IMG/VR virus record: IMGVR_UViG_3300034352_000004
Location: 1 to 24,402 of that record
Strand: one strand, 5' to 3'
Length of the DNA stretch: 24,402 bases
DNA from: a virus
The position numbers and the translations under genes were made by a program. The notes under the pieces were generated by a model that saw only the letters and a list, made by a program, of their open reading frames with translations, was not told the DNA's origin and did not search any database. Below are positions 22,229 to 24,402 of this stretch, piece by piece; the first letter of the stretch is position 1; every line of letters begins with the position of its first letter.

Positions 22229-22583
22229 GGACATTAATACAGAAGAAGATTATCAATCTGATGATTATATGGGTATTCATATAACCAAAGAGAACTATAC
22301 TTTCGTAGAGTCTGTAGATCAAGAGCAGTGGACTATTAGAATAAAGACAGGTGAATTTAAAAATACGTTTTATCAGTATGGTAAGATTAAGGTTCATGAA
22401 TCTGATGGTAAAGATCCTATACTCAAATTCTCTTATAAGATATTAGAATCCGATGGTGATATAGAATCCGTATCCGCTGACAGAAAGTTTCTTGATTACA
22501 TTTCTGCCATTCTAAAACATATACTAGAGGATAGTTTACTTAATGATCCAAACAACGATACTAAAGAACTTAATCCAGAATGA
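22227..22583 (+). CDS. Unknown acidic protein in gene 40 position
   Basis: 118 residues between uvsX and gene 41, where T4 has gene 40 (114 residues, head-vertex chaperone). Size and place agree, but I see no convincing sequence match, so no symbol is given. It is acidic, with a core that reads ENYTFVESVDQEQWTIRIKTGEF, KNTFYQYGKIKVHES and KFSYKILESDG, suggesting a beta-rich fold, and a C-terminal helix with FLDYISAILKHILED. The start ATG 22227 has AGGA at 22213-22216 ten bases before it and follows the uvsX stop closely, fitting coupled translation. Met15 (22269) is an alternative start for RNA made from the overlapping promoter. The 3' end overlaps gene 41 by 41 bases. Confidence 0.75.
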   Translation: MDINTEEDYQSDDYMGIHITKENYTFVESVDQEQWTIRIKTGEFKNTFYQYGKIKVHESDGKDPILKFSYKILESDGDIESVSADRKFLDYISAILKHILEDSLLNDPNNDTKELNPE

Positions 22584-23169
22584 TGAGTACACAAGACAGG
22601 TCATTCCATTCCTAAAGAATGAATACTTCGATTCTTCCCATCAATCTCTTTTTAAGCTGGTAACTGAATTTGTTAATAAATACAATTCACTACCTACTAA
22701 AGAAGCATTTGTTATCGAACTTGAGAATTATTCTGAAGAGATAAAGGATGTAGGGGAATTTACAGGTATCTTAGAATCAGTATTTCAACCACTTGATGAA
22801 GCTACAGATAAGAAATGGCTGCTTGACACTACAGAGAAGTGGTGTCAGGATAGGGCTATTCATATTGCCATTATGGACTCTATAGGTATCATAGATGGGC
22901 AATCTAAGGAGTTAACTAAAAATGCAATACCTGACATATTGTCTGACGCACTTGCCGTTTCCTTTGATAGGAATATTGGTCATGACTATCTCGATGCTTC
23001 TGCTAGTAGGTATGATTTCTATAATAGAGTCGAGAAGCGTGTACCATTTGATCTCGACTACTTTAACCAAATTTCTGGTGGCGGTCTTCCAAACAAAACC
23101 TTGAATATCGTAATGGCAGGATGTGTTCACCCGACCACGAAAGTAAGGATTAGATACCGGAAGAAGTAG
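22543..23169 (+). CDS. 41: Replicative helicase gp41, N-terminal part with intein N-fragment
   Basis: DnaB-type hexameric helicase that unwinds the fork. This gene gives 208 residues. Residues 1-193 are the helicase N-terminal domain and the start of the ATPase domain. ILKNLIQNDEYTRQVIPFLK, EYFDSSHQSLFKL and DILSDALAVSFDRNIGHDYLD match T4 gp41, and NKTLNIVMAG corresponds to T4 GTLNVLMAG just before Walker A. At this point a 15-residue intein N-fragment follows (CVHPTTKVRIRYRKK) and then a TAG stop. The Walker A loop is missing and is found in the gene at 23968. Full-length helicase therefore requires trans-splicing. The start lies within the preceding gene, with GAGGA at 22527-22531. The last 20 bases overlap the antisense endonuclease gene. 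Confidence 0.93.
   Translation: MIQTTILKNLIQNDEYTRQVIPFLKNEYFDSSHQSLFKLVTEFVNKYNSLPTKEAFVIELENYSEEIKDVGEFTGILESVFQPLDEATDKKWLLDTTEKWCQDRAIHIAIMDSIGIIDGQSKELTKNAIPDILSDALAVSFDRNIGHDYLDASASRYDFYNRVEKRVPFDLDYFNQISGGGLPNKTLNIVMAGCVHPTTKVRIRYRKK
23122..23166 (+). other. Split intein N-fragment (IntN), 15 residues
   Basis: Begins with Cys1 after the extein Gly. Cys1, Thr6 and Val8 agree with intein block A (C-x4-T-x-V). The fragment ends RYRKK, strongly basic, before a stop. Block B is not here but in the other fragment, which marks an atypical split near the intein N-terminus, as in AceL-TerL and VidaL inteins. Confidence 0.88.
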
Positions 23170-23836
23170 TTTTCTTTTTCTTACTCCAATGCACACCGAT
23201 TCTCCAAGTTGGGTTTGAATCGATAAAGAAGTTCCTTGCAGCTTCGGTATGAAACTTCTTAGTCTTAATACCGTTAGTTGCTGGTTTCTTCGCAGACAGT
23301 TTACCTGCTTTTTTGGCATGATCTTTGTCTTTGAAGGAACCTTGTTGATCTGTAAACTTAGGATTATTACCAGATTTAACAGATGCTATACCACCAAGGC
23401 GGGCTCGTTCTTTACGACCTTCAGGTGTAGACCAATAATGAAAAGTGTCTTTTGACCCTGATTTGCGTTGAGTTTCTAAAGCTTTGGCGGTCCAAGATGA
23501 GCGAAGTGCATCCCACTTAGGGTTATGGAATCCTATTTGATTGTCACGGCAATATTCACCGACTTTGCGTCTATATTCAGTTGTTAGATTAGCACCTAAC
23601 ATATGCATAGCTCTTAGGTCATTTGTCTGTCCGTGTATAAGGTAAAGTAAATGATGAGCAGTTATATGCTCTTGGACAGTAAGATATGTGTAGTTGGTTT
23701 CGACATCTTTACCACCCGAATGTTTAGGTTGTATATGATGTTTATGAAGACCAGAACCTGGTGCGTAATGCTTCTTGTCAGAGATGCCTTCAAGGCAGAT
23801 GCGGGTGTAGAGGTAGATATAAATAGAGTTATACAT
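23150..23836 (-). CDS. HNH homing endonuclease, antisense between the helicase halves
   Basis: Probable site-specific DNA endonuclease that spreads the fractured locus. The best start is at 23836 (ATG preceded by AAAAGGAA, 7 bases spacing), giving 228 residues; an open extension to 23998 lacks a good ribosome site. The HNH/beta-beta-alpha-metal motif is clear: HKHHIQPKHSGG (His33-His34), ETNYTYL (Asn48), VQEHITAHHLLY (His57, His61). The C-terminal half is basic and repetitive in character (RKERARLGG, DHAKKAGKLSAKK), typical of the DNA-binding modules of phage homing enzymes. It is the only minus-strand gene and is richer in G+C than its neighbours (55 of 120 bases at 23401-23520 by hand count, against 15 of 60 at 18901-18960 in gene 43), which points to transfer. 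Its stop overlaps the IntN end by 20 bases, tail to tail. Confidence 0.9.
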   Translation of the reverse strand: MYNSIYIYLYTRICLEGISDKKHYAPGSGLHKHHIQPKHSGGKDVETNYTYLTVQEHITAHHLLYLIHGQTNDLRAMHMLGANLTTEYRRKVGEYCRDNQIGFHNPKWDALRSSWTAKALETQRKSGSKDTFHYWSTPEGRKERARLGGIASVKSGNNPKFTDQQGSFKDKDHAKKAGKLSAKKPATNGIKTKKFHTEAARNFFIDSNPTWRIGVHWSKKKKTTSSGI

Positions 23837-23865: not shown

Positions 23866-23910
23866 GGATAGGGGAGATGTTTCTGCATCTTTCCTGTCCG
23901 ATTTTATTAT
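23866..23910 (+). terminator. Terminator-like hairpin between endonuclease and IntC gene
   Basis: In + strand RNA the arms GGATAGGGGAGATG (23866-23879) and CATCTTTCCTGTCC (23886-23899) pair over 14 positions, including three G-U pairs, with a 6-base loop. GATTTTATTAT follows. In minus-strand RNA the three G-U pairs become mismatches, so the structure is tuned for + strand transcripts coming from the helicase N-part. Confidence 0.65.
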
Positions 23911-23911
23911 G

Positions 23912-23940
23912 TTGACTTATAACATCTTTTATGTTATAAT
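23912..23940 (+). promoter_or_regulatory. Sigma70-type promoter for the IntC-helicase gene
   Basis: TTGACT (23912-23917), 17-base spacer, TATAAT (23935-23940), one base from consensus, directly after the hairpin. The predicted start is about 20 bases before the ATG at 23968, which has its own ribosome site. Confidence 0.85.
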
Positions 23941-23942
23941 AG

Positions 23943-23950
23943 TATTTATA
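23943..23950 (-). promoter_or_regulatory. Late-type promoter box for the endonuclease
   Basis: TATTTATA on the + strand reads TATAAATA on the minus strand, the exact late-promoter sequence, about 107 bases upstream of the endonuclease start. The endonuclease may thus be made late. One 8-base match in AT-rich DNA can be chance. Confidence 0.5.
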
Positions 23951-23967: not shown

Positions 23968-24357
23968 ATGGAAATAAATCAAAATAACTGGTGTTCACCA
24001 GAAACCGTAGCTATATCTAAGATAGATACGTTACTTAAAGAAGGATATGAGATTGAAGTTGATTCGCCTGATGGTTGGGTTGGTGTTAACTTCTATATCG
24101 ACAAAGGCGACTTCCAAGAATATATTCTAAGAATACCTGGATATGAAGATGTGCGATGTAATGCCGATCATCTATTCGAGACAACTGTAGGTTGGATTCC
24201 AGCATCAGGTAATCAGAATAAAGAACTCCACTTCCTAACTAAAGATGGCTTTAAGAAAGGTAAAATATACGAATCTGAGAAGATCATTCCTATTGTTGAT
24301 ATCAATGTAGAGCATAAGAATCATAGATATTATACCAATGATATATCATCTCATAAT
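23968..24357 (+). other. Split intein C-fragment (IntC), 130 residues
   Basis: Carries the rest of a mini-intein with no internal endonuclease domain. Block B is VRCNADHLFETTVGWIPAS, with His68 of the T-x-x-H motif kept but Asn65 where Thr is usual. Block F is DINVEHKNHRYYTNDI (His119). Block G is SSHN, ending with His129-Asn130 before Thr131. The first 35 residues are acidic (GYEIEVDSPDG), opposite in charge to the basic IntN tail. Confidence 0.92.
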
Positions 24358-24402
24358 ACAGGTGTCGGGAAATCTCTCTTTATGTGTCATGTAGCTGGTG
24401 GT
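23968..24402 (+). CDS. 41: Intein C-fragment fused to the ATPase part of helicase gp41, 3' end outside window
   Basis: Open frame of 145 codons running off the window. It starts at ATG 23968 after GAGAGG (23957-23962). Residues 1-130 are an intein C-fragment, followed by extein residues TGVGKSLFMCHVAGG, which match the T4 gp41 Walker A region (GVNVGKSLGLCSLAA). Joined to the other half after its MAG, this gives TLNIVMAG-TGVGKS, the complete P-loop. The +1 residue is Thr131, a proper nucleophile for trans-splicing with Cys1 of the other half. This gene has its own promoter and start, so it is a second gene and not a broken remnant. The remaining helicase motifs lie downstream of the window. 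Confidence 0.95.
   Translation, partial: MEINQNNWCSPETVAISKIDTLLKEGYEIEVDSPDGWVGVNFYIDKGDFQEYILRIPGYEDVRCNADHLFETTVGWIPASGNQNKELHFLTKDGFKKGKIYESEKIIPIVDINVEHKNHRYYTNDISSHNTGVGKSLFMCHVAGG

What the first reader, a model, noticed from the sequence alone, without database searches (positions are those of the whole stretch)
23150..23836. Antisense HNH endonuclease occupies the break between the intein halves
The endonuclease reads opposite to all other genes, overlaps the end of the IntN gene by 20 bases tail to tail, and has higher G+C than neighbours. It has a classic HNH motif, whereas the endonucleases first linked to fractured split-intein genes were described as a Vsr-like family. Inference: it may cut intein-free gene 41 at or near the P-loop codons and so spread the whole fractured cassette, a collaborative homing arrangement with a free-standing enzyme.
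Basis: partly seen in the sequence, partly recalled or inferred. Interest (0 to 1): 0.78.

Follow-up and report, generated by a model that had tools for sequence, protein, structure and literature searches.

The report
Backwards homing gene splits phage helicase
In many uncultured phages the gene for the replication helicase is broken in two by a self-joining protein insert, and the gap holds a DNA-cutting gene read backwards that probably copies the whole insert into intact helicase genes of related phages.

Summary
Confirmed: a 228-aa HNH gene (23836-23150, minus) lies between the halves of a gp41 helicase gene broken by a VidaL-type split intein (IntN 15 aa, IntC 130 aa) and overlaps the IntN gene tail to tail by 20 bp. 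It is not a one-off. Among 82 distinct versions of this intein from IMG/VR, 64 have the same HNH family, antisense, at the same break; 3 have it in sense; 6 are unsplit and 2 split without it. The same family lies antisense in a fractured uvsX in 4 of 4 loci found. HNH genes are under purifying selection. In 54 of 64 loci a T4-late-type TATAAATA serves the HNH strand, and in 53 of 64 a sigma70-like promoter faces IntC. Intein plus HNH is up to 97-100% identical between phages whose helicase DNA is about 65% identical. The window's closest relatives are intein-free; mismatches to them peak beside the insertion site, and those intein-free sisters differ from each other mostly there too. Best reading: a fractured-gene cassette that homes into intein-free gene 41, the Mob-type HNH enzyme nicking or cutting near the P-loop codons. 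Cleavage and trans-splicing are untested. New variant of a known kind (fractured genes, Dassa 2009).

The parts
22543..23121 (+). gp41 (DnaB-like helicase) N-extein coding region, ending ...NIVMAG before the P-loop TGVGKS
   Evidence: PHROG 19 DnaB-like helicase E 8e-40
23073..23121 (+). 49-nt tract next to the insertion site that deviates from intein-free sisters (putative co-conversion tract)
   Evidence: 15 of 50 mismatches against 29 of 529 further out, p=5e-7; polarity
23122..23169 (+). IntN, 15 aa CVHPTTKVRIRYRKK plus stop
   Evidence: same position as the VidaL split
23150..23836 (-). antisense Mob-type HNH homing endonuclease gene, 228 aa
   Evidence: (PHROG 655, E 3e-10)
23866..23899 (+). 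15-pair terminator-like hairpin followed by T run, between the HNH start and the IntC promoter
23912..23940 (+). sigma70-like promoter TTGACT-17-TATAAT (11 of 12) for IntC-gp41C
   Evidence: counterpart in 53 of 64 loci, about 5.6 expected
23943..23950 (-). T4-late-type promoter element TATAAATA reading into the HNH gene
   Evidence: counterpart in 54 of 64 loci, about 1.1 expected
23968..24357 (+). IntC, 130 aa, ending SSHN
24358..24402 (+). start of the gp41 C-extein TGVGKSLFMCHVAGG (P-loop), cut by the contig end

Best explanation
A mobile fractured-gene cassette. Gene 41 is encoded as gp41N-IntN and IntC-gp41C; the two products are joined by protein trans-splicing at the P-loop (inferred from the intein family). 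The gap holds an antisense Mob-type HNH homing endonuclease whose upstream region is a divergent control module: a late-type promoter for the nuclease and a sigma70-type promoter for the orphaned helicase half. The enzyme is inferred to nick or cut intein-free gene 41 near the MAG|TGVGKS codons, a site the intein destroys, so that repair copies intein plus nuclease into the recipient. Shown: architecture, conservation, purifying selection, promoters by sequence, horizontal transfer of intein with HNH, local DNA replacement at the empty site. Inferred: cleavage, its position, trans-splicing.
For: 64 of 82 distinct inteins carry the antisense HNH; 45 of 64 overlap IntN tail to tail by 4-44 bp and 62 of 64 HNH genes are full length. 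HNH dN/dS median 0.165. Promoters 54 of 64 and 53 of 64. Cassette transfer: e.g. L101/L104 N-extein 0.687, HNH 0.961, IntC 1.000, C-extein 0.808. Raised identity beside the insertion: 0.835 in the first 90 nt left against 0.713 and 0.717 in controls; disjoint pairs 0.137 against 0.071, p=0.017, n=9 and 74. HNH follows the intein beyond extein relatedness: partial Mantel r 0.454, 0 of 2000 permutations. The window's nearest relatives are intein-free at 92.4% identity, with mismatches peaking at the site. Two intein-free sisters differ at 11 of 10,140 nt, 7 of them at +11 to +35 of the site with the protein unchanged; of 58 close intein-free pairs such enrichment is almost confined to this lineage. 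Independent second locus: antisense HNH in fractured uvsX, 4 of 4.
Against: No biochemistry. The HNH gene can be replaced without the intein (L089, L096: HNH about 62% alike with IntC 94-96%), so the two are not strictly one unit. Three distinct inteins have a sense HNH. Requiring all four sisters to agree weakens the window's tract to 6 of 49 against 19 of 530, p=0.014. Another 50-nt stretch 817 nt away holds 12 mismatches against 15 at the site. The window's 45 nt of right flank shows no clear excess (4 of 45). The donor of the left tract was not found. Short tracts in metagenome contigs could partly be assembly effects.
Confidence: 0.74

Rival explanations
1. The HNH gene homes into the intein DNA itself: its target is an unsplit mini-intein gene, and the HNH insertion created the split.
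For: Unsplit inteins with no HNH exist and are continuous exactly across the break (L004, L005, L127, L148). The HNH can be exchanged within one intein background.
Against: Unsplit alleles are scattered tips among antisense-HNH alleles, and the L127 group sits beside L114 and L101 and carries the same KIS codons, as expected for secondary loss. In the window's lineage the relatives are intein-free, not unsplit-intein, and variation peaks at the intein-free site.
Confidence: 0.1
2. The HNH is a free-standing homing gene aimed at another sequence; it merely shelters in the intein gap, and the intein spreads by ordinary homologous recombination at a conserved gene.
For: Relatives occur as free-standing genes elsewhere (L203, L223, L225, L227, L228; phage records). 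Recombination at conserved helicase DNA is plausible.
Against: 64 of the 80 best relatives lie at this one site; HNH and intein co-vary beyond exteins; intein-free pairs of other lineages show no hotspot at the site; an independent fractured uvsX has the same arrangement.
Confidence: 0.12
3. The local differences at the empty site reflect assembly chimeras or a natural recombination hotspot, and say nothing on the nuclease.
For: All sequences are metagenome assemblies; other windows also reach p<0.01 in 64 of 1828 cases.
Against: L245 and L244 match over 10.1 kb apart from 11 sites, 7 in one 25-nt tract at the intein site; two contigs (L007, L352) carry the other haplotype. A chimera hitting the intein site in several comparisons of just this lineage would be a coincidence.
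Confidence: 0.15

Closest known systems
Fractured genes with split inteins and free-standing homing endonucleases (Dassa et al. 2009, NAR; not held; content recalled)
   Same: A conserved DNA-replication enzyme gene broken by a split intein with a free-standing endonuclease gene in between.
   Different: HNH (Mob-type), not the Vsr-like family; antisense with a divergent late/sigma70 promoter pair; very short IntN. Whether that paper already lists HNH or antisense cases could not be checked.
VidaL atypical split intein (PDB 6vgv; passages of PMC13014065)
   Same: Best sequence and fold match (E 4e-14, TM 0.86); IntN 16 aa split after strand beta2, as here.
   Different: About 29% identical; VidaL is known as a protein tool, and its genomic surroundings were not available here.
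T4 Mob HNH homing endonucleases (MobB, MobC, MobE; passages of PMC2988022)
   Same: HNH domain plus a separate C-terminal region; PHROG 655 homing endonucleases; predicted-structure matches MobB and MobC. T4 mob genes also carry embedded promoters for neighbours.
   Different: T4 homing genes lie in the direction of their neighbours except segD (GIY-YIG), which is antisense and lacks a known promoter. Here it is antisense, inside a split-intein gene, with its own late-type promoter.
MIJ3 polB split intein with an HNH gene (passages of PMC6892783)
   Same: HNH gene between the halves of a split-intein gene in a phage.
   Different: Different gene and intein; orientation not stated in the passages seen.
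F-CphI collaborative homing (passages of PMC6083498)
   Same: Free-standing nuclease whose target is (there shown, here inferred) destroyed by the intervening element it moves.
   Different: F-CphI sits beside an intron-bearing gene and uses an Endo VII motif; here the nuclease lies inside the split element.

Membership tests
Fractured gene | Conserved enzyme gene broken in two by a split intein | tested here: met
Fractured gene | Free-standing endonuclease gene between the halves | tested here: met
Vsr-like (EDxHD) endonuclease of fractured genes | Vsr-like catalytic domain | tested here: not met
   PHROG 655 and HNH motif; no Vsr match in Pfam or PHROGs
Mob-type HNH homing endonuclease | HNH (beta-beta-alpha metal) motif | tested here: met
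   H33, N48, H57 invariant in 38 rows; strands 30-34 and 49-53 with helix 54-68. Pfam HNH is below its cut-off
Mob-type HNH homing endonuclease | Nicks or cuts a specific empty site and is preferentially inherited | not testable with these tools
   only indirect population evidence
VidaL-type split intein | HINT fold with split after about 16 residues | tested here: met
   IntN 14-23 aa, median 17, in 64 loci; 6vgv TM 0.86; split in the turn between strands 7-13 and 19-24
VidaL-type split intein | Trans-splices | not testable with these tools
   Cys1 and the C-terminal HN are kept
Group I intron | Ribozyme core | tested here: not met
   no Rfam match in the window and 6 loci
Collaborative homing (strict) | Free-standing nuclease outside the element cuts the element's insertion site | tested here: inconclusive
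   gene lies inside the element; cutting untested

The most novel reading that the evidence does not exclude
Antisense Mob-type HNH genes form a recurrent class of fractured-gene element in phages (gp41, uvsX). The nuclease gene and its upstream region carry divergent promoters, late for the nuclease and sigma70-type for the severed half of the essential host gene, so deleting the nuclease risks silencing the gene. The enzyme cuts intein-free gene 41 at the P-loop codons, and synonymous tract replacement at that site in intein-free sisters is the footprint of attack, repair or escape.
Probability: 0.55. Interest if true: 0.72.

Novelty: new variant of a known kind. Interest (0 to 1): 0.62.

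Why it matters
It suggests how a gene interrupted by an antisense gene can still work (trans-splicing plus a promoter supplied by the invader), gives many natural examples of gain, swap, loss and re-fusion in one split-intein locus, and names a testable target site: intein-free sister alleles that differ by seven changes leaving the protein unchanged are ready-made cleavage substrates. It also offers many short-IntN split inteins (14-23 aa) as candidates for protein ligation tools.

Tried and rejected
Single-sequence scan of viral contigs with the HNH protein found no relative; alignments solved this. Group I intron or other known RNA: no Rfam match. High G+C as a sign of foreign origin: not general. 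Operator mimicking the target site upstream of the HNH gene (as published for I-TevI): null, mean z 0.31, 5 of 58 loci above 2. Near-site excess in other intein+/intein-free pairs: none of the other nine pairs printed (divergence 15-28%) showed a near excess on the left (L137 showed a deficit, p=0.015); they may be too diverged. Donor of the window's 49-nt tract: no exact match in viral contigs. Late element in uvsX loci: exact in L430 only, absent in L427 and L428. PDB relatives of the HNH: none at E 0.001 or better. Genome contigs: 6 weak relatives only. Prevalence cannot be read from the counts, since scans keep the best 80 loci and are biased to close relatives.

Full report
Observation. 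The HNH ORF is at 23836-23150 on the minus strand, 228 aa. The upstream plus-strand ORF 22543-23169 is the N part of a DnaB-like helicase (PHROG 19, E 8e-40) followed by 15 intein residues and a stop; it overlaps the HNH ORF by 20 bp. The IntC ORF starts at 23968 and runs off the contig after 15 C-extein residues. The window is a whole IMG/VR contig, so the second half of gene 41 is not seen. All other plausible genes are on the plus strand. G+C of the HNH gene is raised here but not in the family.

The intein. Profile search of the PDB gives VidaL (6vgv) first, E 4e-14; alignment puts the VidaL break at the same place. A model of the unsplit relative L004 (pLDDT 94) has VidaL as best fold match, TM 0.86, and the break falls in the turn between strands 7-13 and 19-24. 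PMC13014065 (passages) describes VidaL as a natural atypical split intein with a 16-aa IntN.

The locus elsewhere. After merging identical IntC DNA there are 82: 64 antisense HNH, 3 sense HNH, 6 unsplit, 2 split without HNH, 7 IntC only. Of the 80 best HNH relatives, 64 are at this site, 1 is in a fractured uvsX and 15 elsewhere. In 45 of 64 the HNH and IntN genes overlap tail to tail by 4-44 bp; 62 of 64 HNH genes are full length and 60 of 64 match the core motif as I wrote it. In others a further plus-strand ORF lies between IntN and HNH.

Function signs. Median dN/dS of the HNH genes is 0.165 (268 pair values), IntC 0.257, N-extein 0.144 (25 values). Between HNH start and IntC an exact TATAAATA on the HNH strand occurs in 54 of 64 loci (about 1.1 expected) and on the other strand in 1. 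That this is the T4 late element is recalled. A sigma70-like promoter with at most 2 of 12 mismatches lies on the plus strand within 160 nt of IntC in 53 of 64 (about 5.6 expected; opposite strand 2); in the window TTGACT-17-TATAAT at 23912-23940. Many loci are near copies, so these counts are not independent, but divergent loci (L105, L136, L152, L163, L167, window) also have both. PMC2988022 (passages) says T4 homing genes lie in the direction of their neighbours except segD, use middle or late promoters where they have their own, and may embed promoters for neighbours, which favours their retention.

Movement. Phages with N-exteins about 65% identical share intein and HNH at about 92-100%, e.g. 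L101/L104: N-extein 0.687, HNH 0.961, IntC 1.000, C-extein 0.808. In 75 pairs with IntC at 0.93 or more, the 90 nt left of the insertion are 0.835 identical against 0.713 (intein pairs with diverged inteins) and 0.717 (intein-free pairs); right 0.819 against 0.705 and 0.750, staying high to 540 nt (the three sets differ a little in far identity, 0.674, 0.643, 0.643). With each locus used once the excess is 0.137 (n=9) against 0.071 (n=74), p=0.017. HNH and IntC distances correlate beyond exteins (r 0.454, 0 of 2000 permutations, 62 loci), but L089 and L096 carry an HNH from another intein background. Unsplit and HNH-less split alleles sit among antisense-HNH tips of the intein tree (few columns, many weak forks), and L103/L107 and L153 keep stop-and-restart or overlapping-frame breaks without the HNH, so the nuclease gene is probably lost at times while the break persists or re-fuses.

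Empty site. The window's nearest relatives are intein-free (L007=L244, L245, L352; 92.4% over the N-extein). Mismatches are 15 in the last 50 nt and 29 in the other 529, p=5e-7; it is the densest 50-nt stretch in 2.7 kb, the next having 12. With L008 as third sequence the window is the odd one at 14 of 49 near sites against 19 of 530; if all four sisters must agree, 6 of 49 against 19 of 530, p=0.014, because L247 also deviates near the site. No intein-free pair among 42 with 2-12% far divergence reaches 15 of 49. Strikingly, L244 and L245 differ at 11 of 10,140 nt, 7 of them at +11 to +35 of the site and none changing the protein there. Of 58 close intein-free pairs drawn from 228 intein-free locus entries (some contigs fetched more than once), six rows (four distinct contig pairs), all of this lineage, have p from 2e-16 to 2e-8 at plus or minus 50 nt; one other row has p=0.007; elsewhere 64 of 1828 windows reach p<0.01. 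I read this as the scar of attack and repair, or of escape, at the nuclease target. The cut position itself is inferred.

A second gene. L226 (=L427) has uvsX halves (PHROG 97) with a canonical split intein and an antisense HNH of PHROG 655 between them. A pattern for its IntC-extein junction found four contigs; all four have an antisense HNH reading frame there (in L430 the N-half of uvsX lies outside the stretch held). Exact TATAAATA upstream is present in 1 of the 3 examined. By contrast PA5oct uvsX and the LR756500 phoH-like gene have VidaL-like IntC with a sense, non-HNH ORF in the gap.

Nuclease family. Model pLDDT 89, pTM 0.57; no PDB match at E 0.001 or better; viral library matches include T4 MobB and MobC with low overall TM (0.30-0.32 by query length).

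Novelty. Nine searches of the open library listed no title or abstract describing an antisense HNH in a fractured gp41 or uvsX; I read only passages found by term of PMC6892783, PMC7090010, PMC13014065, PMC10448857, PMC8966425, PMC2988022, PMC6083498, PMC3653736 and PMC8228797, and listings for the rest. The key paper (Dassa 2009) is not held and the VidaL paper did not appear in the search for that name, so earlier mention cannot be excluded; that Dassa 2009 found the Vsr-like family in about half of its loci is recalled. HNH in a fractured polB is in print. Hence: new variant of a known kind.

Noticed in passing
L283:4962-7612: gp41 appears encoded in three pieces by two split inteins: an HNH-less break at the P-loop site (41-nt gap) and a second, canonical split at TRSGY|SNTD with a small ORF between.
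   Followed up: partly
L004:4690-5130: A second gp41 intein C-part at the SNSD site in a phage whose P-loop intein is unsplit.
   Followed up: no
L103, L107, L153: Split inteins that lack the HNH but keep the break by an early stop and restart or overlapping frames.
   Followed up: partly
L137:600-700: 48-nt tandem duplication of N-extein codons ending exactly at the intein insertion site; its C-half reading frame is also broken.
   Followed up: no
L118, L121, L137: A different HNH subfamily in sense orientation in the same gp41 break.
   Followed up: partly
L002:1954-2727, L088, L092, L099, L102, L110, L112: Plus-strand ORF between IntN and HNH, several with a shared motif like DIYDIILSHLLDEGYAETPEAAEAIMVNMSEEWR; no PHROG match for the L002 copy: possible cargo.
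   Followed up: partly
L243:599-3855: A phoH-like gene fractured by a VidaL-like split intein with a sense 430-aa ORF in the gap.
   Followed up: no
window 23866-23899: Strong hairpin plus T run between the HNH start and the IntC promoter; may stop read-through from gp41N or control HNH translation.
   Followed up: no
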